Below are positions 30,231-41,570 of a stretch of 64,000 bases of DNA, piece by piece. The number at the start of each line of letters is the position of its first letter. Positions within the stretch are counted from its first letter, which is position 1. This DNA comes from Ferrovibrio sp. (GTDB taxonomy: Bacteria; Pseudomonadota; Alphaproteobacteria; Ferrovibrionales; Ferrovibrionaceae). A program made the position numbers and the translations under genes. The stretch is from positions 1 to 64,000 of the forward strand of contig NZ_JAHBYG010000009.1 of NCBI RefSeq assembly GCF_019636075.1, in the 5' to 3' direction. The notes below the pieces were generated by a model. That model saw only the letters and a program-made list of their open reading frames with translations, was not told the origin of the DNA and searched no databases.

Positions 30231-30259
30231 TTGACGCCATCCCGCCCCCGGAATATGGT
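30231..30259 (+). promoter_or_regulatory. Strong sigma-70-type promoter for the tRNA-Lys region
   Basis: TTGACG (30231-30236), exactly 17 bases, then TATGGT (30254-30259). It ends 14 bases before the truncated tRNA-Lys 5' half and 131 bases before the intron-bearing tRNA-Lys, and is the only good promoter seen for both. Confidence 0.7.
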
Positions 30260-30273
30260 CCGCCACCTCTTGG

Positions 30274-30313
30274 GAGCCCGTAGCTCAGCTGGTAGAGCAA
30301 GCGACTTTTAATC
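30274..30313 (+). pseudogene. Truncated tRNA-Lys 5' half
   Basis: The stretch reads as acceptor strand GAGCCCG, TA, the D arm GCTCAGCTGGTAGAGC, A, the anticodon-stem strand AGCGA, then loop CTTTTAA and TC. It then stops resembling tRNA: there is no variable loop, T arm or CGGGCTC-type 3' acceptor strand. It shares TAGCTCAG(C/T)TGGTAGAGCAAGCGACTTT with the complete gene 117 bases downstream. It cannot fold into a tRNA and is read as a remnant. Confidence 0.75.
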
Positions 30314-30320
30314 AAAAGTC
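30303..30320. other. Candidate fossil attachment-site core in the tRNA-Lys anticodon arm
   Basis: GACTTTT-AATC-AAAAGTC is a perfect inverted repeat with 7-base arms. The left arm and centre are tRNA; the right arm is not tRNA sequence. This is the geometry of a tyrosine-integrase core site formed when an element enters a tRNA anticodon loop. No integrase gene remains in the window. Confidence 0.45.
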
Positions 30321-30361
30321 CAGCTAGGTTTTCCAAGGGGTTGCGAAGGCAAAGTACGGTG

Positions 30362-30380
30362 CGGTAGCACCACGGTAGCA
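30362..30380 (+). repeat. CGGTAGCA direct repeat, possible integrase arm sites
   Basis: CGGTAGCA occurs at 30362-30369 and 30373-30380, 11 bases apart (one helical turn), between the truncated and complete tRNA genes. Helically phased short direct repeats beside a tRNA junction fit arm-type integrase sites. Confidence 0.4.
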
Positions 30381-30390
30381 AGTTAGGTGT

Positions 30391-30681
30391 GGGTCCGTAG
30401 CTCAGTTGGTAGAGCAAGCGACTTTGCACAATAGGAGTGCGCGGCTCGAAAGGGCCGACGTAGAACCGCTCAAATTCGGTGAACTCGTCCGCGTCAGGGC
30501 GACGACAACGCCGAGCCAAGCCCCTCCGGGGGAAGGTGTAGAGGCCAGACGGGCGGGGCCTAAAGCCGGAGACGGCCAAGGCCAAGGCATGGTCCAGACC
30601 ACGAACCCCCAGTGGGGCGGCGAAAGCCGAAGTGGTATGTTAATCGAGAGGTCGCGGGTTCGAATCCCGCCGGACCCACCA
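30391..30681 (+). tRNA. tRNA-Lys(UUU), interrupted by a group I intron
   Basis: Two exons, 30391-30424 and 30640-30681, join to a 76-nt tRNA including encoded CCA. Acceptor GGGTCCG/CGGACCC pairs perfectly, the D stem is GCTC/GAGC, and the T arm GCGGG-TTCGAAT-CCCGC is perfect. The spliced anticodon loop is CTTTTAA, giving anticodon UUU. The intron lies between U34 and U35. One oddity: anticodon-stem strands AGCGA and TCGAG pair at only three of five positions (A27-G43 and G28-A42 mismatched), as if the 5' exon had been converted to the sequence of the adjacent truncated copy. Other tRNA-Lys genes may exist elsewhere. Confidence 0.88.
30425..30639 (+). ncRNA. Group I self-splicing intron (IC3-like), no ORF
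   Basis: 215 nt, closely resembling the Azoarcus tRNA-Ile intron as I remember it. P1: exon ACTT (30421-30424) pairs with GAGT (30435-30438), leaving the required U-G wobble at the 5' splice site. P2: CGGCTC-GAAA-GGGCCG (30442-30457). P4 strands: ATTCGGTG and CGCCGAGCC. P6 follows AAGCC. P7: GGCCA (30543-30547) with TGGTC (30590-30594), a compensated version of GACUA/UAGUC. The element AAGGTGTAGAG is conserved. P9: CCCC/GGGG and CGGC-GAAA-GCCG (30618-30629). The intron ends in the obligatory G (30639). Confidence 0.93.
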
Positions 30682-30805
30682 ACTTGCGAAAACCAATTCC
30701 GTTTCAGTAATCCTAAAACCTCTATCCTAACCTCTTGGATGGCCTGCCCCAAGGTGAGTTATGAATAGCCCCTAGATTCGCAGACGCCTTCTTCCCTAAT
30801 TATGA
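30682..30805. other. Non-coding stretch downstream of tRNA-Lys
   Basis: Relatively AT-rich sequence between the CCA end and the gene remnant. I see no gene, no terminator and no repeat of the tRNA 3' end that would mark the far end of an integrated element. Confidence 0.5.
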
Positions 30806-30904
30806 GGCGAGGAGGCCAAGTACGGGATACAAGTCACCGCTGGGCACAGCGATGAGGCGCTCACGCAGGCCCAATCAGCAGTCGTGAGATTCTTGAAAAA
30901 ATGA
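30806..30904 (+). pseudogene. C-terminal remnant of a gene coupled to the cyclase-like gene
   Basis: A 32-codon open stretch begins immediately after an in-frame TGA (30803-30805), has no start codon, and ends in a TGA that overlaps the next gene's ATG (ATGA at 30901-30904). Its translation, with AKYGIQVTAGHSDEALTQAQ and ending AVVRFLKK, looks like a real protein tail. Such coupling is typical of operons, so this is probably the end of a deleted upstream partner. Confidence 0.5.
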
Positions 30905-31719
30905 ATGATGCCCAGAAAGCAAACTACGAAAAGCGATATGTCGCGTTCCTTGATATTCTTGGTTTCCGTGAGGCTGTGAAGAAAAGCACTGCCCATGATC
31001 AAACCTTGTTTTCGATCATCAACGCGCTACACAGCATAAGGCCACAGCCCGACCACATTTATAAGATCACCACCATCCCCTCCACACTGCCCCCGCCAAA
31101 GTTCGGGGCCTCGGTATTCTCAGACAGCATCATCATCTATGATGAGTTCTCATTAGCTGGCCTATACCGGACCATTAACAACATCACCCAAGTCACCGAG
31201 CAATTGGCGATCTATGGAATGCTGGCTAGGGGTAGCCTCACCTGCGGTCTGCTGCACGCGGCAAATTCCCCTAGCAACCAGCCCGTGGTGTTTGGCCCCG
31301 CCTTGGTGCAAGCAGTGGACCTAGAAAAAGTGGCCCGGCACCCCCGCGTGATCCTCTCAGCCGATGTCTATAACGAGATTTGGCACTATGGGATCGCAAT
31401 GGATAGTAACTATAGGGATTCCGTCATCATTCGTGATCCCGATGATGGCGCAGCCTACATCAGCCCCATGTATGGTTTCCGCTCACTGGTCTGCCGTGAT
31501 GAACCTGATTTGAAACAGTTGGGTTTGGATTATCTCGCTGCTGTAGCTCACAGTCTGATGCAGAACTTACGGGATGCCATAGACAACCCCGAGCATTTCA
31601 AAAAGCAGCGTTGGTTCACCGAACAGTACAACAGCATCATGCGTGTTGCAGGTCGCCCTGAATTGCAGATCAATGAGTTCACCGCGCATTGGCTCGGGCA
31701 CGCGACCGAGGATCAGTAG
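30901..31719 (+). CDS. Class-III-cyclase-like protein of unknown function
   Basis: 272 aa, soluble. RYVAFLDILGFREAVKKS (Asp 18) and FGASVFSDSIIIYD (Asp 75) occupy the places of the two metal-binding Asp motifs of class III nucleotide cyclases. The later LARGSLTCGLLHAANSP and VVFGPALVQAVDLEKVARHP resemble the rest of that fold, but the Asn-x-x-x-Arg transition-state motif is not evident. Families with this FLDILGF/FSD pattern are widespread in accessory regions; activity is unproven. Base composition is clearly less GC-rich than neighbouring genes, and it sits beside a disrupted tRNA, so it was probably acquired. Its ATG overlaps the stop of a gene remnant. Confidence 0.65.
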   Translation: MNDAQKANYEKRYVAFLDILGFREAVKKSTAHDQTLFSIINALHSIRPQPDHIYKITTIPSTLPPPKFGASVFSDSIIIYDEFSLAGLYRTINNITQVTEQLAIYGMLARGSLTCGLLHAANSPSNQPVVFGPALVQAVDLEKVARHPRVILSADVYNEIWHYGIAMDSNYRDSVIIRDPDDGAAYISPMYGFRSLVCRDEPDLKQLGLDYLAAVAHSLMQNLRDAIDNPEHFKKQRWFTEQYNSIMRVAGRPELQINEFTAHWLGHATEDQ

Positions 31720-31799
31720 TCCTAAAAATTGGCAAATTCCTCGGGCGGGGTGGTACCTTACACATGGGGTGGCCGAGCCAACGCCCAACCGAGCGCGTA

Positions 31800-32369
31800 T
31801 CAGCGTTGGCGTAATCCTGCGGCATGGGCCAGCACGAAAGCCTCCTGCTCTGCCGTTTCTATGGTTCCGGGCCGCGCCTGTCTGACATGGGCTATCGCTT
31901 CCAAGGCCGATGCTCCGCCGGCAACAAGCAGCATTGCCGCCATGGTGCCGGTTCTGCCCAGGCCGGCAGCGCAATGGATAAGGATGCGCTCACCCTCCGC
32001 CAACCTGCGCAACACATCAGGCAGCGCATCATTCCACTGCGCCAGGCTGGCCGGCCCCGGCGGCTGATAATCCTCGATCGGGATTTGCAGCCAGGCTATG
32101 CCTTTGGCGGCCAGACCGGCTTGCAGACCGGCCGCGCCATGGCGGGCCAGTTCGCCGTCGCCGAGCAGCGAAACCACAAGCCCTACGCCCCGATCGGCAA
32201 TGGCGGCGATATCCTCGGCAAGATCGCGCGACCAGCGAATGCCGCGCGCATCGACGGAATTGCGCCCCGGGCAATGGGCCATGCCAATCGCACCGCCGCC
32301 ACCGGCTGGATACACGAAATCAATCTTCAGCGGCGCGCCGCTGGATGGCTGCATCGCATCAGCCGCCAT
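31800..32369 (-). CDS. Dual-specificity/tyrosine phosphatase-like protein
   Basis: Cysteine-based phosphatase, 189 aa. The P-loop IHCAAGLGRTGTMAAMLL (residues ~130-147) has the full Cys-x5-Arg-Thr signature, and the general-acid Asp probably lies in IPIEDYQPP. A KIDFVYPAGGGGAIGMAHCP opening near residue 15 is typical of small bacterial DSP-like proteins. Its ATG overlaps the end of the LysR gene by 11 bases, so the two are co-translated. Substrate could be protein, lipid or small phospho-compounds. Confidence 0.8.
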   Translation of the reverse strand: MAADAMQPSSGAPLKIDFVYPAGGGGAIGMAHCPGRNSVDARGIRWSRDLAEDIAAIADRGVGLVVSLLGDGELARHGAAGLQAGLAAKGIAWLQIPIEDYQPPGPASLAQWNDALPDVLRRLAEGERILIHCAAGLGRTGTMAAMLLVAGGASALEAIAHVRQARPGTIETAEQEAFVLAHAAGLRQR

Positions 32370-33249
32370 GATTGGCCTTCAAGGTATCCAGGAATGTTTG
32401 CAGCATGCGTGTTTTGCGCCGTTTCTTCAACGTGATCGCCTTGCACTCGACCCGGTGGCTGAAATACTGCGGCAACACCTTGCGGACAAGCCTCTTGTCC
32501 AGCCATTGCTTGGCATAATGGTCTGGCAGATATCCGGCATAGGCGCCCGACATGACCAGGAAGGCAAGCCCCTCGATATTCTTTGCCGTGGCAGTGGTGC
32601 TGAACGCGACAACCTGCCGGCCGACCTGGCTTTCACGCAAATAGCCGCGCGCGGCATAATCCATGCCCAGCAGATCGGATTTCTGCAGCGTCTTTTTGCC
32701 GAAGAGCGGATGCCTGTTGCCAATGTAAAGCGATATGTCCTCTGCATAGAGCTGCATCTCCTCTATGCCCGGAATGGCAATATGGAAAGGCCCGATGGCA
32801 ACATCGATCTGTTCATCCAGCAGCAATCGCTCCAGTTCGCTGGGATTCTGGGTATCCAGAATAAACTCAATGCGCCGATTCTGCGCCTTCAGGTCGGCTA
32901 TCGTTTCCGACAATCGGCATTTGCGGTCGGTGATGATGTTGTCAACGATGCCCACGCGCAATTGGCCCGATACGGTCTGCGTCACCCGGCTGATATCGGA
33001 TTGGAAATCCTCCAGCGACTGAAAAAGCCGGTTGCACGATTCCAGCACACTCAAGCCCTCCGGGGTGAGCTTAAAGCCTTTCCGTCCCCGGTCGCATAGG
33101 CGCATGCCGAGGGATTTCTCCAAACCCGCCAGATGCGCGCTGATGGTGGGCAGATTGATATTCAGTGCGGTTTCGGCCGCGCTGAGGCCGCCGCATTCCA
33201 CAACCTGCTTGAACAGCTTCAGCCGTTTGACTTCGATTTCATTCAGCAT
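32359..33249 (-). CDS. LysR family transcriptional regulator
   Basis: 296 aa. The N-terminal helix-turn-helix spans residues ~5-65 (VECGGLSAAETALNINLPTI, then SAHLAGLEKSLGMRLCDRGR). The C-terminal domain is the periplasmic-binding-like effector domain, with GQLRVGIVDNIITDRKCRLS near residue 90. It diverges from the ureohydrolase/ABC-importer operon across a 324-base gap with a perfect palindrome, so it is the likely regulator of that operon. The inducer is not known. Confidence 0.9.
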   Translation of the reverse strand: MLNEIEVKRLKLFKQVVECGGLSAAETALNINLPTISAHLAGLEKSLGMRLCDRGRKGFKLTPEGLSVLESCNRLFQSLEDFQSDISRVTQTVSGQLRVGIVDNIITDRKCRLSETIADLKAQNRRIEFILDTQNPSELERLLLDEQIDVAIGPFHIAIPGIEEMQLYAEDISLYIGNRHPLFGKKTLQKSDLLGMDYAARGYLRESQVGRQVVAFSTTATAKNIEGLAFLVMSGAYAGYLPDHYAKQWLDKRLVRKVLPQYFSHRVECKAITLKKRRKTRMLQTFLDTLKANHGG

Positions 33250-33573
33250 TGCGGCACCGTGGATTCGATTTGCGCGCTATTGCGAAGGTAGCGGCGGATT
33301 TGGCTGCCAATGGCACACATAATAAGAATCGCACTGCGCGAATTTCACACAGCACGCCCTGTTTGCAGGCAGTCACGCCAAAAATATATGCAGCCACATG
33401 CTCTCCTCTGCTCGATTGATAACCACACATGCAGCCATACAGCCGGCCTGCTATCGCAGCTTGCCATTACTTATATATATATCAAAGTTTACTTTGAAAC
33501 TTCGTTATTCTTGAACTGTCTGCGATAACGCAAGGTTCGTGGCATCTACCCAGTTCAGCCACAGGGCCATTTG
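33250..33573. other. Divergent intergenic region between LysR and ureohydrolase genes
   Basis: 324 bases with no gene. The right third is AT-rich (a TATATATAT tract at about 33473-33481), followed by the palindrome noted separately. The sequence CATGCAGCCA/ATGCAGCCACA appears twice on the left. Promoters of both divergent units must lie here, but no clear -35/-10 pair stands out. Confidence 0.5.
33482..33497. promoter_or_regulatory. Palindromic operator candidate for the LysR regulator
   Basis: TCAAAGT-TT-ACTTTGA is a perfect inverted repeat (7-base arms) in the divergent region, about 75 bases before the ureohydrolase start. LysR proteins bind dyads of this kind between their own gene and the target. 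Confidence 0.5.
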
Positions 33574-34554
33574 ATGAAAGAGTCCCGCTTTCAACCGATC
33601 ACTGGAACCGTCCTGCCCCGATATGCAGGCTTGGCCACCTTCATGCGGCTGCCATATCTCGACCTGGATGACGCCCGCCTGCCGCAGGTGCAGATTGGTT
33701 TGGTTGGCATTCCTTGGGATGGCGGCACGACCAATCGCGCCGGCGCACGCCATGGCCCGCGCCAGATCCGGGATCAATCCACCATGGCGCGCAATGTCAA
33801 TCGCGCCTCCGGCCTCAATCCCTTTAAATTATGCAATTGCGCCGATCTGGGCGATACGCCGGTCAATCCGGTAGACCTGGAAGAAAGTCTGCGGCTGATC
33901 GAAAACTATTACACCCGCATTCATCAACAGGGTATCGCACCGCTCACCGCCGGCGGCGATCATCTGGTCACCCTGCCTGTGATGCGGGCGATTGCGCGGG
34001 AAAGACCGGTCGGCATGGTGCATTTCGATGCCCATACGGATACCTGGGATCGCTATTTCGGTAGCAGCCGTTACACCCATGGCACGCCTTTCCGGCGCGC
34101 CATCGAGGAAGGCTTGCTGGATCCCAGGCGCACGATTCAGATCGGCATACGCGGCGCGCTTTATAACGACAGCGAAAATGACTGGGGCGAGCGCCAGGGC
34201 ATCCGCGTTATCGATATCGACGAATACCATCGCATGGGCATAGAGGGCGTGATCCAGGAAGCCAGGAAGGTGGTGGGCGATGGCCCCACCTATGTGAGCT
34301 TCGATGTGGATTTCCTCGATCCGGTCTATGCGCCCGGCACCGGCACACCGGAAATCGGCGGCGCCACCACCTATGATGCGCAGCAGCTTGTACGCGGCTT
34401 GCGCGGCCTCAATCTGGTCGGCGGCGATGTGGTGGAGGTCTCCCCCCCTTTCGATCCATCAGGCAATACCGCTCTGGTGGGTATGACCATGATGTTTGAA
34501 ATCCTTTGCGTGCTGGCCGAATCCGTCAGCAAGCGCCAGTCAAATTCCGCTTGA
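33574..34554 (+). CDS. Ureohydrolase of the agmatinase/guanidinobutyrase family
   Basis: Manganese enzyme releasing urea from a guanidino compound, 326 aa. All metal-binding motifs are present: TAGGDHLVTLPV (residues ~126-137), VHFDAHTDTWDRY (~149-161) and VSFDVDFLDPVYAPGTGTPE (~240-259). The arginase fold does not reveal whether the substrate is agmatine, guanidinobutyrate or another guanidino acid. ATG 33574 is preferred over a TTG one codon earlier. The ABC importer genes follow 31 bases later on the same strand, implying that it processes the imported compound. Confidence 0.9.
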   Translation: MKESRFQPITGTVLPRYAGLATFMRLPYLDLDDARLPQVQIGLVGIPWDGGTTNRAGARHGPRQIRDQSTMARNVNRASGLNPFKLCNCADLGDTPVNPVDLEESLRLIENYYTRIHQQGIAPLTAGGDHLVTLPVMRAIARERPVGMVHFDAHTDTWDRYFGSSRYTHGTPFRRAIEEGLLDPRRTIQIGIRGALYNDSENDWGERQGIRVIDIDEYHRMGIEGVIQEARKVVGDGPTYVSFDVDFLDPVYAPGTGTPEIGGATTYDAQQLVRGLRGLNLVGGDVVEVSPPFDPSGNTALVGMTMMFEILCVLAESVSKRQSNSA

Positions 34555-34585
34555 TTGCACAACCCAACGCAGGAGATAAAACCAT

Positions 34586-35614
34586 ATGCTCGAAAAATAC
34601 ACCAAGCCGCTCGCGCTGTCTTTTGCAGCAACGTCTCTATTCATCATCGCCTCGGCACAGGCTGGCGAATTGACAATCTACAGCTCGGTGGAAGCCGATA
34701 ACCTGAAGGTGTTTTCCGAGCAATTCGCCAAGGCGCATCCCGATATCAAGATCAACTGGGTGCGCGATTCAACCGGCGTGATTCAGGCGCGGGTGATCGC
34801 TGAAAAGGAAAATCCCCGCAACGATGTCTTTTTCGGCCATGCCGCCACCGATCTTCTCGCGCTGGACCAGATGGGCATGTTCATGCCCTACCAGCCCAAG
34901 GGCGCCGATAAGCTGGATCCCCGCTATCGCGATAAGAAAGCACCGCCGACCTGGACCGGCCTGTGGGGCTTTGCCGCCGCCGTCTGTTTCAATACCGTGG
35001 AAGCGGCCAAGCGCAATATACCGCAGCCGACCAAATGGGTGGATCTGGCAAATCCGGTTTACAAGGGGCAGATCACCATGCCCAACCCGATCTCCTCGGG
35101 CACCGGCTTTCTGAATGTGGCCGGTTGGATGCAGATCATGGGCAAGGACAAGGCCTGGTCCTTCATGGATCAATTGCATGGCAACATCGCCAGCTACACC
35201 CATTCCGGCTCCAAACCGTGCAACCAGGTGGCCGCCGGCGAATATGTGGTCGGCATTTCGCTGCCGGGCCGCGCCGCGGATCTGAAAACCAGAGGCGCCC
35301 CGATCATGGCGGTTATCCCCGAAGACGGCATCGGCTGGGAAATGCAAGGCGTTGCCATCATGAAGGGCACCAAGAACGCCGCCGATGCCAAAACCTTCGT
35401 CGATTGGAGCGTTTCCGAAGCCGCGATGGAAAGCTATGCCGCCCGCGTGGAGGTCGTTGCGTTTCCCGTAAAAACGCCGATGCGCGAAAATATGCCGCGC
35501 GAGGTTTCCACCAGGATGATCAACAACGATTTTGCCTGGGCCGCCACCAACAAGACCGAAATCCTCGACGAGTGGCGCAAGCGCTACGACAGCAAGACAG
35601 AACCCAAGAAGTGA
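34586..35614 (+). CDS. ABC transporter substrate-binding protein, 2-aminoethylphosphonate type
   Basis: Periplasmic receptor, 342 aa, with a Sec signal (residues 1-26, cleavage near AQA-GE). ELTIYSSVEADNLKVFSEQF and NDVFFGHAATDLLALDQMGM are characteristic of the binding protein of the PhnS2/AepX class in the Fe3+/AEP receptor group. AGGAG precedes the ATG. Its stop overlaps the ATPase start by one base (TGATG). The ligand is assigned by family only; the adjacent ureohydrolase suggests a guanidino or amino compound instead. Confidence 0.82.
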   Translation: MLEKYTKPLALSFAATSLFIIASAQAGELTIYSSVEADNLKVFSEQFAKAHPDIKINWVRDSTGVIQARVIAEKENPRNDVFFGHAATDLLALDQMGMFMPYQPKGADKLDPRYRDKKAPPTWTGLWGFAAAVCFNTVEAAKRNIPQPTKWVDLANPVYKGQITMPNPISSGTGFLNVAGWMQIMGKDKAWSFMDQLHGNIASYTHSGSKPCNQVAAGEYVVGISLPGRAADLKTRGAPIMAVIPEDGIGWEMQGVAIMKGTKNAADAKTFVDWSVSEAAMESYAARVEVVAFPVKTPMRENMPREVSTRMINNDFAWAATNKTEILDEWRKRYDSKTEPKK

Positions 35615-36723
35615 TGCCCCAGCCTCAGCTTGCACAAGACACGGACGGTGCCGCCCCAGGCGCCGTCCAGACCTATATTCAGGTCGACCGCCTGAGCAAA
35701 CGCTATGACAAGGCCACGGTGCTGAACGAAGTCTGCTTCGATATCAGACAGGGCGAATTCATCTGCTTTCTCGGCCCATCGGGTTGCGGCAAAACCACCC
35801 TGCTGATGTGTCTGGCCGGGCTTGAGCAGGCAACATCGGGCATGGTTTACCGTCATGGCGCGCCGTTTCTTACATTGCCGCCCTCGCAACGCGATATTGG
35901 CATCGTATTTCAATCCTACGCCCTGTTTCCGAATCTCACAGTCGAACAGAATATCCGCTTCGGCGTGGAGAATCTCCGCAAGCCGAAGATCGAGATACAG
36001 AAGATCACAGCCGAACTGATCGACCTGCTGTCGCTTTCCGGACATGAGCGGAAATACCCAAACCAATTATCCGGTGGCCAACAACAGCGCGTGGCCCTGG
36101 CCAGGGCCTTGGCAATCTCCCCATCCCTGCTGCTGCTCGATGAACCGCTATCTGCGCTGGATGCCCAGGTGCGCATCCGTCTGCGTAGCGAATTGCGCGA
36201 CCTGCAAGCCCGCCTTGGCATCACAACCATCATGGTCACCCATGACCAAGAGGAAGCGCAAAGCCTGGCCGACCGCATCGTGTTGATGAATCAGGGGCGC
36301 ATCGAACAGATCGGCACTCCTTGGGACATCTACAACAATCCGAAAACACGTTTCGTGGCGGATTTTATCGGAACGGCTAACCTGTTCGACGGCCGGATCA
36401 CCGCACCTGGCATAGCAGAAGCCGAGGGGCTACGCATGTTTGGCGCCAGCGGCATGCTGGCATCGGGCAGCCCGGTCACGCTGCTGATTCGTCCGGAGGA
36501 TATTTCGGTTTCCGCGCAGAAAACCCAAACCAGCCAGCTTTCTGCCCTGATCCGCAAGATAGAGTATCTCGGCGCAACGCTTCGTTTGCATATGGCCAGT
36601 GATACTGGAAAATCACTGGTAGCCGATCTGCGCAAGCAACAGGCCGGCGATATCCAACTGCAAACCGGTGCCAGGCTCTGGCTGAGCATCCCACCCGATG
36701 CGATGAAAATCCTGCCGTCATGA
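35614..36723 (+). CDS. ABC transporter ATP-binding protein, 2-aminoethylphosphonate type
   Basis: Energising subunit of the importer, 369 aa. Walker A GPSGCGKTTL (about residues 55-64), signature LSGGQQQRVALARAL (~150-164), Walker B LLLLDEPLSALDAQ (~171-184) and the H-loop VTHDQEEA (~206-213), then a C-terminal TOBE-like domain (residues ~260-369). The start is ATG 35614, overlapping the receptor's stop. The end overlaps the permease start by four bases (ATGA). Confidence 0.92.
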   Translation: MPQPQLAQDTDGAAPGAVQTYIQVDRLSKRYDKATVLNEVCFDIRQGEFICFLGPSGCGKTTLLMCLAGLEQATSGMVYRHGAPFLTLPPSQRDIGIVFQSYALFPNLTVEQNIRFGVENLRKPKIEIQKITAELIDLLSLSGHERKYPNQLSGGQQQRVALARALAISPSLLLLDEPLSALDAQVRIRLRSELRDLQARLGITTIMVTHDQEEAQSLADRIVLMNQGRIEQIGTPWDIYNNPKTRFVADFIGTANLFDGRITAPGIAEAEGLRMFGASGMLASGSPVTLLIRPEDISVSAQKTQTSQLSALIRKIEYLGATLRLHMASDTGKSLVADLRKQQAGDIQLQTGARLWLSIPPDAMKILPS

Positions 36724-38432
36724 CAACTGCCGATCCAGCCATGGCGGAAGGCAGACTTGCCGCGCCGAAAGAATTATCCGACAAACTGGTAAGCCTGCTG
36801 CTCTGGATCTTTATCGGCGGCATGACGGTTGCCATTCTGCTGCCGCTCGGCCTGTTGTTGATACGCAGCTTCCGCAACCCCCAAGGCGCCTTCGTAGGCC
36901 TGCGCAATTATCAGAAATATTTCGAATCAACCGCCCTGTTCGAGGCCTTTTTCAATAGCGTTTTCGTCTCGCTGGTCACTGCGTTGATCGTCATTCCCAT
37001 CGCATTTCTGTACGCCTATGGGCTCAGCCGCACCAGCATGCGCTGGAAAGGCATATTTCGCGCGATGATTTTCGTGCCCCTGCTGATGCCCGGTCTGCTC
37101 AAGGCTATTGCCCTGGTTTACCTGTTCGGCAATCAGGGCATTCTGAAGGGGCTGCTTCTCGGCCACTCCGTTTATGGTCCGATAGGTATCATTCTGGCCT
37201 CGGTGCTGTGGACATTCCCCCACGCTGTGCTTGTGATTGGCGTGGCCCTGATGAATGCTGATCGGCGGCTCTATCAGGCAGCTGAAATTCTCAACACCAG
37301 TTCCCTGCGCACCTTCCTTGCCGTTACCTGGCCAGCATGCCGCTATGGCGTCATCACTGCCTTTCTTGCGGTTTTCGTTATGGTGTTCACGGATTTCGGC
37401 ATAGCGAAGGTAATCGGCGGAGATATGAGCCTGCTCGCCACGGATATCTACAAGGAGGTTGTGGGGCAGCAGAATTTCGAAATGGGTGCCGTCATTTCCA
37501 TCATCCTGCTGATACCGGCTGTTGTGGTTTTTGTGCTGGAGCGGCTCACTGCCGGTCGGCAATCAGCCCAGATTACCGGCAAGTCCCTGCCCTTCATACC
37601 CAAGCCGCATGCAATCAACGATGGCTTATTCTTCAGCTTCTGCCTGATCGTAGCAGCAATCATGGTGCTCATTCTCGGCATGGCGCAATTTGCCGCGCTG
37701 ATCAAATTCTGGCCCTACAATCTCAACCTCACGCTCAGCAATTACCTTTTCGATCTGGAAGGCGTGGGTTGGGAAAATTTCTGGAATTCGCTGAAAATGT
37801 CGCTCAGCGCGGCAACGCTGGGTACCATAGTGGTATTCATCGGTGCCACCATGGTTGAAAAGGCACGCTTCGATGTAGTGGCGAGCAAGATTCTGCATAT
37901 GCTTGCCCTTTTGCCGATGGCCATACCCGGCCTGGTGCTCGGTCTGTCTTACCTGATGTTCATCAACGACCCGCGCAATCCGCTGGAATTTCTATACGGC
38001 TCGATGAGCATCCTGGTGATCAGCACCACGGTTCACCTCTATACCGTGCCGCATCTGACCGCGCTCACCGGCCTGAAAGGTTTAAGCCGCGAGATCGACA
38101 TGGTGAACCTGTCGCTGCGCACGCCGATCTGGCGGAGTTTTCTACGCGTGATCCTGCCGACGAATATCCCAACCATCCTGGATATCTGGCTGTACATATT
38201 CCTGCGCGCGATGACGACATTATCCGCCGCCATCTTTCTTTACACGTCGCAAACCAAGCTGGCAGCCATCGCTGTGATCCATGTGGATGAAACCGGCAAC
38301 ACAGCCGCCGCAGCCGCCCTCGGCATGCTGGTGGTTTATGCCTGCCTATTCTTCCGCCTGATGCATTATGTGATCAGCCATAGCATTCTCCGCCACTTCC
38401 AGGCATGGCGGGGAACCGGCAAACCCGCTTGA
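36720..38432 (+). CDS. ABC transporter permease, fused two-domain, 2-aminoethylphosphonate type
   Basis: 570 aa with about twelve membrane segments and two binding-protein-dependent permease domains in one chain, the hallmark of the PhnU2/AepW class. Stretches diagnostic of that class include MVFTDFGIAKVIGGDMSLLA, IKFWPYNLNLTLSNYLFD and LHMLALLPMAIPGLVLGLSY. Each half has an EAA-like cytoplasmic loop. Last gene of the ureohydrolase-importer operon. Confidence 0.92.
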   Translation: MTTADPAMAEGRLAAPKELSDKLVSLLLWIFIGGMTVAILLPLGLLLIRSFRNPQGAFVGLRNYQKYFESTALFEAFFNSVFVSLVTALIVIPIAFLYAYGLSRTSMRWKGIFRAMIFVPLLMPGLLKAIALVYLFGNQGILKGLLLGHSVYGPIGIILASVLWTFPHAVLVIGVALMNADRRLYQAAEILNTSSLRTFLAVTWPACRYGVITAFLAVFVMVFTDFGIAKVIGGDMSLLATDIYKEVVGQQNFEMGAVISIILLIPAVVVFVLERLTAGRQSAQITGKSLPFIPKPHAINDGLFFSFCLIVAAIMVLILGMAQFAALIKFWPYNLNLTLSNYLFDLEGVGWENFWNSLKMSLSAATLGTIVVFIGATMVEKARFDVVASKILHMLALLPMAIPGLVLGLSYLMFINDPRNPLEFLYGSMSILVISTTVHLYTVPHLTALTGLKGLSREIDMVNLSLRTPIWRSFLRVILPTNIPTILDIWLYIFLRAMTTLSAAIFLYTSQTKLAAIAVIHVDETGNTAAAAALGMLVVYACLFFRLMHYVISHSILRHFQAWRGTGKPA

Positions 38433-38469
38433 GGGCAACAGCCACGGCATTCCGCTTCAATTGCCCTCA
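38430..38469. terminator. Inverted repeat spanning two convergent stop codons
   Basis: TGAGGGCAA (38430-38438) and TTGCCCTCA (38461-38469) pair perfectly around a 22-base loop. The first arm starts with the permease stop TGA and the second ends with the complement of the chemoreceptor stop TGA. Without a T-run it is a weak bidirectional terminator or an mRNA 3'-end stabiliser. Confidence 0.45.
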
Positions 38470-40134
38470 CGCGTCGATCCGGTACTGCCCCACCAAGCCG
38501 GCAAGATCGCCGGCTTGTTCCGAGAGGGCCTGAGCGGAAGCTGTGGTTTGCTCCACCAATGCGCCGTTGCGTTGGGTGAGTTCATCCATCTGCGATATGG
38601 CTGTGTTCACCTGCTCCAGGCCGGATGCCTGCTCGCGGCTGGCGGCGGTGATTTCAGCGATGATATCGGAAACCTTGCGGCTGGCCGCCACGATATTGCC
38701 CAGTGCATCGCCGGCGCGATTCACCAAAGTGGCGCCAGACTTAACCTGGGCGTTAGAATTCTGAATCAGGCTTTTGATCTCGCGCGAAGCATTGGCGCTG
38801 CGCTGTGCCAATGCGCGCACTTCCTGCGCGACAACGGCAAAGCCCTTGCCCGCCTCGCCCGCGCGGGCGGCTTCCACGCTGGCATTCAGCGCCAGCAGAT
38901 TGGTCTGAAAGGCGATTTCGTCGATCAGCCCCACGATTTCGGAAATCTTTTGCGAGCTTTCCGAAATGTCGCTCACCGCATGCACGGCTTTCTGCACGAT
39001 CTCGCCGCCTTCCTGCGCCACCTTGGATGCATCCTGCGCCAGCCGATTGGCGGCCTCGGCATTCTCGGCATTCTGTTTCACCGTCGTGGTGATCTGATGC
39101 ATGGAGGCTGCGGTCTGCTCCACGGTAGCGGCCTGGCTTTCGGTGCGCTGAGCCAAATCAGAACTGGCCGATGAGATTTCCGACGAGGCAGCGGCCACAG
39201 CGGCGGACGCATCCTTGATACTGCGCAGGATGGTGGTGGTGGTATCGAGGATGGCATTCACACCAAGGCAAAGCTGCATGATCTCAGTACCCATGCCCTC
39301 CGTGTTGATGCGGCGCGACATGTCGTTTTGCTGCGCTGCCGCCACCACATCATCCACCGCCGCCTTCAGCAATTGCGATTGCCGCACCTGCTCGCTGACA
39401 TCGGTTGCGTATTTAACGATCTTGAACACGCGTCCCTTGGCATCCACGATGGGGTTGTAGCTGGCCTGGATCCAGGCTTCCTTGCCATTTTTTCCGATGC
39501 GTCGATAGCGACCGATATCGAAGGCGCCGCTGCGCAGCTTCTGCCAGAAGGCCTCGTATTCCGCGCTGGCGGCGTAAGCCGGATCGACAAAGATGCGGTG
39601 ATGCTTGCCGGTTATCTCGGCCAACTCATACCCCATCAAACCGAGGAAATTGGCATTGGCGTAGCGGATCGTGCCATCGGTGTTGAACTCGATCACGGCC
39701 TGCGACTTGCGGATCGCGGCAATCTGCCCATCGGCATCGGCCTGCTGTTCTTTTTGTGCGCTGATATCGGTGGCGAATTTCACCACCTTGATCACGCGCC
39801 CGGCGGCATCGAAAATCGGATTATAGCTGGCCTGAATCCAAACCTCACGGCCACCATTGGCAACGCGGCAATATTGCCCCGCATCATATTCGCCACGCCG
39901 CAACTTGGCCCAGAATTCCGCATAGGCCGGCTGTGCGCTTTCCTGCGGATCGACAAACATACTGTGATGCCGGCCCTTCACTTCCGCCAGCGCATAGCCC
40001 ATCACCTTGAGAAAGTTTTCATTGGCGAAAAGAATATTGCCGCCAGGATCGAATTCGATCAGGCCTTGCGAACGGCTGATCGCCTTCACCATATCGTCGG
40101 CCGCTGTGTCGCGCGAAAAAAACTTTGTCAGCAT
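38467..40134 (-). CDS. Soluble methyl-accepting chemotaxis protein with two PAS domains
   Basis: Chemoreceptor of 555 aa without membrane segments. Two tandem PAS domains (residues ~20-125 and ~140-250) each contain the Pro-less repeats YNPI(F/V)DAAGRV/KGRV and VWIQASYNP or AWIQASYNP. The signalling hairpin tip [20 protein letters not shown] with [20 protein letters not shown] lies at ~430-470. It would sense an internal redox or energy cue and signal through CheA/CheW. I start at ATG 40134; a longer reading would add a short hydrophobic leader. C-terminus lacks an obvious CheR-tethering pentapeptide. Confidence 0.9.
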
Positions 40135-40314
40135 GGCGCCCCCACACCACTGCGTGAACCGGCTTTGATGCCGGTCGATCCTGGAGAAAACCCCAGGAAA
40201 AACACACGCTATAATAACAAGAAAAATCAAATACAGTTGATGTTTTAATACTTATTGACGATTACTTGTTGCAAATAAAACTTATTGATGCGGTAACCGA
40301 GTATGGAGAGTTTC

Positions 40315-40425
40315 TCAAAACATCTGCCTGGTAAGCCAAAACACCAGATGCGCAAGGCCATAGGCAATCGCGGCAAAAACAGCGGCAATCCCAAAAACCT
40401 TCAGATGGGGCCGTAGTTTTTCCAT
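40315..40425 (-). CDS. Small membrane protein downstream of tgt (36 aa)
   Basis: An ATG two bases after the tgt stop opens a 36-codon frame, MEKLRPHLKVFGIAAVFAAI..., ending LTRQMF and TGA. It has a basic N-terminus and one hydrophobic helix (residues ~9-31), as in single-pass small proteins. The position and composition support translation; no ribosome-binding site is obvious, and no function is known. Confidence 0.45.
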   Translation of the reverse strand: MEKLRPHLKVFGIAAVFAAIAYGLAHLVFWLTRQMF

Positions 40426-40427
40426 GA

Positions 40428-41570
40428 TCAGGGCTGAGAATTTCCGCTTAAGGGCTCGATATCGCCCAGCGCCTGACCGGCATGGAAATCAGCGGCGAAT
40501 GCCTCCAGGCCGCCCTTGGCAATGGCGGCGCGCATGCCTGCCATCAGATCCTGATAGTAGGTCAGGTTATGCGCGGTCATCAGCATGGCACCGAGGATTT
40601 CATCCGAGCGCACCAGATGATGCATGTAAGCGCGGCTGTAATGCCGGCAGGCCGGGCAGCGGCAATGCTCGTCGATGGGGCGCGGATCCTCGGCATGACG
40701 GGCATTGCGGATATTGAGCGTGCCGCGCCGGGTGAAAGCCTGGCCGTTGCGGCCCGAGCGGGTTGGCATCACGCAATCGAACATGTCGATACCGCGCTGC
40801 ACGGCGCCGACAAGGTCTGACGGCTTGCCCACGCCCATCAGATAACGCGGGCGATCCTGCGGCAGATGCGGCGTCGTTACATCCAGGGTGGCAAACATTT
40901 CCGCCTGAGTTTCGCCTACCGCCAGGCCGCCCACGGCATAGCCATCGAAACCGGTGGCGATCAGGCCCTTGGCGGATTCCTCGCGGAAAGCAGCATCCGT
41001 GCCGCCCTGAACGATACCGAACAAGCCATAGCCGTCGCGCTGGCGGAATGCCGTCTTGCAACGTTCCGCCCATCGCAGACTCAGCCGCATGGCCTCCGCT
41101 ACGCGCTTATCATCGGCGGGCAGCTTCACGCATTCATCCAACTGCATGGTGATGGTGGCATCCAGCAGATGCTGAATTTCGATGGATCGTTCCGGCGTAA
41201 GCTCGTAGCGCGCACCATCGATATGCGATTGAAAGCTGACGCCCTGCTCGTTCACTTTGTTGAGCTGCGATAGCGACATCACCTGAAAGCCGCCCGAATC
41301 GGTGAGGATCGGCCCTGGCCAATGCATGAATTTATGCAAGCCGCCCAACTTGGCCACGCGCTCCGCCGTGGGCCGCAGCATCAGGTGATAGGTGTTGCCC
41401 AGAATGATCTGCGCCCCGGTTTCAGCCACTGCTTCAGGTGTCATCGCCTTTACCGTGGCAGCCGTGCCCACAGGCATGAAGGCCGGCGTATCAATGGCCC
41501 CATGGGCGGTATCTAGCCGGCCCAGCCGGGCAGCACCATCCGTAGCGAGAAGCGAAAAAGACAGGCTCAT
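40428..41570 (-). CDS. tgt: Queuine/preQ1 tRNA-ribosyltransferase
   Basis: Exchanges G34 for preQ1 in tRNAs with GUN anticodons, 380 aa. Landmarks: [20 protein letters not shown], the catalytic-region [10 protein letters not shown] and FGIVQGG, and the zinc site [17 protein letters not shown]. The start is ATG 41570, which overlaps the queA stop (ATGA); five more residues could be read upstream but lack support. It works on the pathway step just before QueA. Confidence 0.96.

What the first reader, a model, noticed from the sequence alone, without database searches (positions are those of the whole stretch)
30391..30681. tRNA-Lys(UUU) interrupted by a group I intron between U34 and U35
The two exons make a 76-nt tRNA with perfect acceptor and T stems. 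The 215-nt insert has P1 with a U-G splice wobble, GAAA-capped P2 and P9 helices, a compensated P7 and a terminal G. Known bacterial tRNA group I introns are best described in tRNA-Leu(UAA), tRNA-Ile(CAU) and tRNA-Arg(CCU). An intron in tRNA-Lys, at the same anticodon position I recall for tRNA-Leu(UAA), would extend that list. The intron has no ORF, so it relies on self-splicing.
Basis: partly seen in the sequence, partly recalled or inferred. Interest (0 to 1): 0.9.

Follow-up and report, generated by a model that had tools for sequence, protein, structure and literature searches.

The report
Self-splicing intron splits a lysine tRNA
In this bacterium the only gene found for the transfer RNA that reads the lysine codon AAA is cut in two by a small ribozyme-type intron that must be spliced out, in a tRNA not on the usual list of intron hosts, and similar split lysine tRNAs turn up, mostly unannotated, in several bacterial phyla and in a phage.

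Summary
In detail: window 30391-30681 is a tRNA-Lys(UUU) gene (34-nt and 42-nt exons) interrupted after U34 by a 215-nt group I intron of the IC3 kind. Rfam's Intron_gpI model misses it. A covariance model built only from six related introns hits the window at 119 bits (E 2e-24). Core helices, including P7, covary across 75 aligned sequences, and the G-C pair of the guanosine site is invariant. Spliced in silico it is a normal tRNA-Lys(UUU); no other UUU gene was found in the genome. Nine same-genus genomes have an uninterrupted gene, so the intron was probably gained in this lineage, beside a truncated intronless 5' half. It is not unique: tRNA-Lys(UUU) introns occur in 8 of 385 sampled alphaproteobacterial genomes, in Microbacterium, Tistrella mobilis and Gordonia phage Daredevil. 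Relatives also sit in Lys(CUU), Thr(GGU), Thr(CGU) and Leu(CAA) tRNAs. No open-access paper found here reports a credible group I intron in tRNA-Lys, but most subscription literature could not be searched. Splicing itself is inferred, not shown. This is a known ribozyme class in an apparently unreported host tRNA.

The parts
30231..30259 (+). sigma-70-like promoter TTGACG-17-TATGGT, at the place of the promoter of the uninterrupted gene in same-genus relatives
30274..30313 (+). truncated intronless 5' half of tRNA-Lys(UUU), through the anticodon loop to ...TTTTAATC; the resident gene remnant or first copy of a tandem duplication
   Evidence: not called a tRNA by ARAGORN; Rfam tRNA only 16.1 bits
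30314..30390 (+). 77-nt spacer of unknown origin between the truncated half and the complete gene
   Evidence: no match in 20 relatives
30391..30424 (+). exon 1 of tRNA-Lys(UUU), nt 1-34
30425..30639 (+). group I (IC3-like) intron, 215 nt, terminal G at 30639
30421..30438 (+). P1: exon A31-C32-U33-U34 (30421-30424) pairs with guide G30435-A-G-U30438; U34.G30435 marks the 5' splice site
   Evidence: sequence
30442..30457 (+). P2 hairpin CGGCUC-GAAA-GGGCCG
   Evidence: sequence
30463..30606 (+). catalytic core matched by CM R1: P3 30466-30471/30551-30556, P4 30476-30481/30509-30514, P5, P6, P7 30543-30547/30590-30594, P8 30557-30561/30579-30583
30543..30594 (+). P7 strands GGCCA (30543-30547) and UGGUC (30590-30594); G30543-C30594 is the expected guanosine-site pair, invariant in 75 of 75 sequences
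30619..30628 (+). P9-region hairpin GGC-GAAA-GCC
   Evidence: sequence, conserved in relatives
30640..30681 (+). exon 2 of tRNA-Lys(UUU), nt 35-76 including CCA
   Evidence: 3' flank ACTT shared with relatives

Best explanation
A small ORF-less group I intron of the IC3 kind sits in tRNA-Lys(UUU) between U34 and U35. The pre-tRNA folds so that exon nt 31-34 pair with the intron's guide (P1, U34.G). A guanosine bound at P7 attacks after U34; the freed 3'-OH of U34 then attacks after the terminal G (30639), joining the exons into a normal 76-nt tRNA-Lys(UUU). Shown here: homology, architecture, covariation, empty sites in relatives, and no other UUU gene in the assembly. Inferred: the chemistry, and that splicing occurs in the cell. 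The intron belongs to a large family that sits in the anticodon loops of several tRNAs, each time after a U; its absence from nine congeners suggests a gain in this lineage, probably by horizontal transfer.
For: CM trained without the window: 119.1 bits, E 2e-24. Covariation in P3 and P7, 99.6% of cells paired, 0 of 500 shuffles as high; guanosine-site G-C invariant. Some of the same family pass Rfam's group I cut-off. Spliced product is tRNA-Lys(ttt). Empty site in nine congeners, with shared flanks in the four regions compared. No other Lys(UUU) in the genome; AAA codons are used. A related tRNA-Arg(CCU) intron of Bartonella splices in vivo and in vitro (PMC7717549).
Against: No RNA data. 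Rfam RF00028 does not reach E<10. The anticodon stem has two non-standard pairs, though they are conserved in congeners. The P1 of 4 pairs is short. The assembly is a 98.65%-complete draft.
Confidence: 0.93

Rival explanations
1. A decayed, non-splicing group I intron in a dead tRNA gene, with AAA codons read by another tRNA-Lys(UUU) missing from the draft assembly.
For: Draft genome of 85 contigs; a truncated tRNA-Lys half lies just upstream.
Against: All core helices and the guanosine-site pair are intact, both exons are intact, and the acceptor strands of exon 1 and exon 2 match each other. No other Lys(UUU) was found here or in intron-bearing G178, G275, G073, G028 and G101.
Confidence: 0.04
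2. The intron splices only with help of a protein (for example a tRNA synthetase or maturase-like factor), so it does not self-splice under physiological conditions.
For: The short P1 with one wobble pair is weak; some group I introns need cofactors in vivo (PMC7717549 discusses this).
Against: A relative in Bartonella self-splices in vitro; the Azoarcus IC3 tRNA intron is a well-known efficient self-splicer (established knowledge).
Confidence: 0.2
3. The intron was inherited from one ancient tRNA-Lys intron shared by all Lys introns and lost in the congeners, rather than gained in this lineage.
For: Placing the window in the main Lys clade is not rejected (p-AU 0.13).
Against: It would need at least nine losses or an early loss in the genus; the best trees put the window outside the main Lys clade; one clade for all 34/35 Lys introns is weakly rejected (p-AU 0.0245).
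Confidence: 0.15
4. Assembly artefact or chimera at this locus.
For: Tandem 5' halves, and about 9.7 kb not found at this place in relatives.
Against: Same-genus synteny on both sides within one 106-kb contig; exon 2 and its 3' flank match congeners.
Confidence: 0.02

Closest known systems
Alphaproteobacterial tRNA-Arg(CCU) group I introns (Agrobacterium; Bartonella BbgpI, PMC7717549)
   Same: Same class, same small ORF-less IC3 architecture, same core motifs; aligned and modelled together here
   Different: Host tRNA is Arg, insertion after nt 36-37 instead of 34; the Bartonella one has splicing data
[quoted passage not shown]
   Same: IC3 core and the same 34/35 position in the anticodon loop
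   Different: Host tRNA is Leu, a class II tRNA; only the alphaproteobacterial ones were compared here
Azoarcus tRNA-Ile(CAU) group I intron (from memory and reviews; not fetched here)
   Same: Small IC3 intron in a tRNA anticodon loop
   Different: Host tRNA and species differ; crystal structure and splicing known
tRNA-Lys introns found here in Tistrella mobilis, Sphingomonas, Neomegalonema, Microbacterium and Gordonia phage Daredevil
   Same: Same host tRNA; IC3 core by CM R1
   Different: Tistrella, Sphingomonas and Neomegalonema are at 35/36; Microbacterium and the phage are at 34/35 with a different core lineage. A published cyanobacterial tRNA-Lys 'group I intron' (introns of 22-49 nt, PMC5733544) is far too short to be one

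Membership tests
Group I intron | Conserved core helices P3, P4, P6, P7, P8 with covariation | tested here: met
   99.6% of cells paired, 15 of 23 pairs doubly changed, 0 of 500 shuffles as high
Group I intron | Guanosine-binding G-C pair in P7 | tested here: met
   G30543-C30594; invariant in 75 of 75 sequences
Group I intron | U.G wobble at the 5' splice site in P1 and a terminal G | tested here: met
   U30424.G30435 and G30639, read from the sequence
Group I intron | Match to Rfam Intron_gpI (RF00028) | tested here: not met
   No hit at E<10. This is a detection threshold, not a defining feature: relatives G016 and G026 pass it, G024 and G028 fall below it
Group I intron | Guanosine-dependent self-splicing | not testable with these tools
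   Needs in vitro splicing
IC3 subgroup of tRNA introns | Homology to IC3-type tRNA introns of alphaproteobacteria, no P5abc, small size | tested here: met
   CM R1 119.1 bits; 215 nt; but published IC3 subtype models were not available, so the subgroup label rests on similarity and on established knowledge
tRNA-Lys(UUU) | Cloverleaf with UUU anticodon after exon joining | tested here: met
   ARAGORN tRNA-Lys(ttt); uninterrupted orthologue in nine congeners
Mobile group I intron with homing endonuclease | Intron-encoded endonuclease | tested here: not met
   No Pfam match to ORFs across the intron

The most novel reading that the evidence does not exclude
Intron-split tRNA-Lys genes are carried by integrating phages and islands and take the place of the resident tRNA-Lys. 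The truncated resident 5' half, the complete intron-bearing copy beside it and about 9.7 kb of DNA absent there in relatives would be the scar of such a swap, and Gordonia phage Daredevil, with an intron-split tRNA-Lys(UUU) about 0.5 kb from its integrase gene, would be an example of the vehicle.
Probability: 0.15. Interest if true: 0.8.

Novelty: new member of a known kind. Interest (0 to 1): 0.55.

Why it matters
It adds lysine tRNA (and, from relatives found on the way, threonine and leucine-CAA tRNAs) to the hosts of bacterial group I introns. ARAGORN and Rfam miss such genes, so genomes look as if they lack an essential tRNA. A ribozyme reaction stands in the path of AAA decoding. Filled and empty sites within one genus make intron gain directly testable, and the phage-borne and plasmid-borne copies suggest how introns without an endonuclease travel.

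Tried and rejected
Rfam RF00028 at gathering and relaxed thresholds: no hit. ARAGORN without introns finds nothing; with introns it miscalls tRNA-Ser(cga) because it puts the 3' splice site inside the P9 region. Automatic host-tRNA assignment that maximises over all splice-site pairs overfits; anchored on the terminal G and P1 it recovers the window as Lys(UUU) after nt 34 and many others, but it fails on most 35/36 introns and miscalls a few, so the host tRNAs given here rest on reading the exons. Pfam and PADLOC on ORF 30901-31719: nothing. ORFs crossing the intron: no Pfam match. The spacer 30314-30390 has no match in 20 relatives. The strict Lys 3'-junction pattern found nothing in viral contigs. 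The founding papers PMC93479 and PMC179611 are not held. A link between the phage intron and the Microbacterium introns was suspected (86% identity to L132), but the tree does not support a clade and does not reject it (p-AU 0.115).

Full report
Observation. The reported feature is real and correctly placed. Exon 1 is 30391-30424, the intron 30425-30639 (215 nt, last base G) and exon 2 30640-30681. Joined, the exons are called tRNA-Lys(ttt), 76 nt. Standard annotation misses it: ARAGORN finds no tRNA in the window, Rfam finds nothing at gathering score, and no Intron_gpI match appears at E<10.

Group I identity. blastn of the gene against 60 relatives found matches in other alphaproteobacteria: G028 (72%) and G050 (68%) over the whole gene, both in tRNA-Lys(UUU); G016 in tRNA-Leu(UAA); and partial matches in G024 and G043 (tRNA-Arg(CCU)) and G026 (tRNA-Leu(UAA)). 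RF00028 recognises G016 and G026 above its cut-off, which ties the family to group I introns independently. A covariance model of the P3-to-P9 core, built from six of these introns without the window, hits the window once, at 30463-30606, 119.1 bits, E 2e-24. On an alignment of 75 matches (73 strong, 2 weak) the helices form standard pairs in 99.6% of cells, 15 of 23 pairs have changes on both sides, and no shuffle of 500 reaches any measure. P7 crosses P3 and was not part of the model's structure; it is 99.7% paired with two doubly changed pairs, and its guanosine-site G-C pair is invariant. In the window P7 reads GGCCA/UGGUC. P1 pairs A31-C32-U33-U34 with U30438-G30437-A30436-G30435, which gives the U.G at the splice site (read).

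Gain of the intron. Nine same-genus genomes have an uninterrupted tRNA-Lys(UUU). In the four regions compared, flanking genes are shared: relatives run from the sequence matching window 30254-30313 straight into that matching 30640-30685, and about 0.8-1.6 kb further on reach the sequence matching window 40325-40453. In the window a promoter-like site (30231-30259) and a truncated intronless 5' half (30274-30313) remain, followed by a 77-nt spacer without match in relatives and then the intron-bearing gene. The two 5' halves form a 38-nt direct repeat. Their acceptor strands differ (GAGCCCG against GGGTCCG), and only the second pairs fully with exon 2 (CGGACCC). About 9.7 kb between exon 2 and the tgt-like gene at 40428 is absent at this place in relatives. 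A tandem duplication with decay of the first copy, or an integration event, would leave this picture; I cannot separate them.

Dependence on splicing. The genome shows 41 intact tRNAs, among them Lys(CUU), and no other Lys(UUU). AAA codons occur in neighbouring genes (13 AAA to 34 AAG in four genes). By established decoding rules CUU cannot read AAA, so if the assembly is complete the cell depends on splicing; this step is inference. The same search found no intact Lys(UUU) in the intron-bearing G178, G275, G073, G028 and G101, while G050 has a second one in an array of 9 tRNAs.

How widespread. In an even sample of 385 alphaproteobacterial genomes (the window's own included) 48 carry an intron of this kind. 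Reading the exons gives as hosts Leu(UAA), Arg(CCU), Leu(CAA), Lys(UUU) (8 genomes), Lys(CUU) (4), Thr(GGU) (7) and Thr(CGU) (2). A strict pattern scan of one genome per species, read, gave 52 stretches: 17 Lys(UUU) at 34/35 in Microbacterium or similar actinobacteria; 3 alphaproteobacterial Lys(UUU) at 34/35; 12 Lys(UUU) at 35/36 (Tistrella mobilis NC_017956, Sphingomonas, Neomegalonema and others); 6 Lys(CUU); and 14 with a different, larger insert in tRNA-Lys(UUU), mostly Rhodothermales, of which a Kuenenia bin's matches RF00028 at 54.1 bits. These are lower bounds. CM R1 confirmed the core in all IC3-type named loci that were run.

Relationships. In trees of the core the window intron groups with the 34/35 Lys intron of G073 (98/97, 91/96) and lies outside the main Lys clade, whose support is 98/93, 94/92 and 99/96 in three trees. 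Putting the window into that clade is not rejected (p-AU 0.13); one clade for all 34/35 Lys introns is weakly rejected (p-AU 0.0245). Several entries into tRNA-Lys are therefore likely but not proven.

Mobility. Gordonia phage Daredevil carries an intron-split tRNA-Lys(UUU) at 34/35, about 0.5 kb from its integrase gene. A 2014 review states that phage introns known then were all in protein-coding genes (PMC3984707).

Known or new. Papers read here name Leu(UAA), fMet, Ile and Arg(CCU) as bacterial hosts (PMC4033280, PMC8450103, PMC5733544, PMC7717549). One claims a tRNA-Lys group I intron in a cyanobacterium with introns of 22-49 nt (PMC5733544), too short for a group I ribozyme. Nine literature searches found no other report, but only open-access text was searchable. 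I file it as a group I intron in an apparently unreported host tRNA: a new member of a known kind.

Noticed in passing
L215 3001-3260 (pCTX-M3, NC_004464.2) and similar plasmid records: An intron-split tRNA-Leu(UAA) of the same intron family, with no annotated feature under it, lies next to the AAA-ATPase gene that neighbours aac(3)-IId. The window gene matches 1279 plasmid records (71-73% identity in those listed), and the pCTX-M3 copy is in 627 of 5426 complete E. coli genomes, almost all at 99% identity or more.
   Followed up: partly
L218 1330-1660 (Gordonia phage Daredevil, NC_048021.1 41814-42144): Unannotated tRNA-Lys(UUU) split at 34/35 by an IC3-type intron near the phage integrase gene.
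   Followed up: partly
L162 5499-5770; L126, L129, L130, L136, L174: A different, larger insert in tRNA-Lys(UUU) at the anticodon loop in Rhodothermales bins, a Kuenenia bin and an alphaproteobacterial bin; the Kuenenia one passes the Rfam group I cut-off.
   Followed up: partly
L085, L096, L102, L108, L109, L111, L118 (Thr GGU); L103, L104 (Thr CGU); L110, L114, L117, L121 (Leu CAA); L075, L083, L090, L123 (Lys CUU): IC3-type introns in tRNAs that the papers read here do not list as hosts.
   Followed up: partly
window 30686-40425: About 9.7 kb (ORF 30901-31719, a phosphatase, a LysR regulator, an arginase-family enzyme, an ABC transporter, a chemotaxis-type protein) is absent between tRNA-Lys and the tgt-like gene in same-genus relatives.
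   Followed up: partly
window 30901-31719: 272-aa protein without Pfam or PADLOC match, absent from nine congeners, weak matches in two other alphaproteobacteria.
   Followed up: no
L185 1191-2136 (G050:C48): Array of 9 tRNA genes within 1 kb, with an intact tRNA-Lys(UUU), in a genome whose other tRNA-Lys(UUU) is intron-split.
   Followed up: no
viral contigs L273, L280, L226, L232, L261, L272, L275: Introns of this family apparently in tRNA-Arg(UCU); assigned only by an automatic reading that is known to overfit.
   Followed up: no
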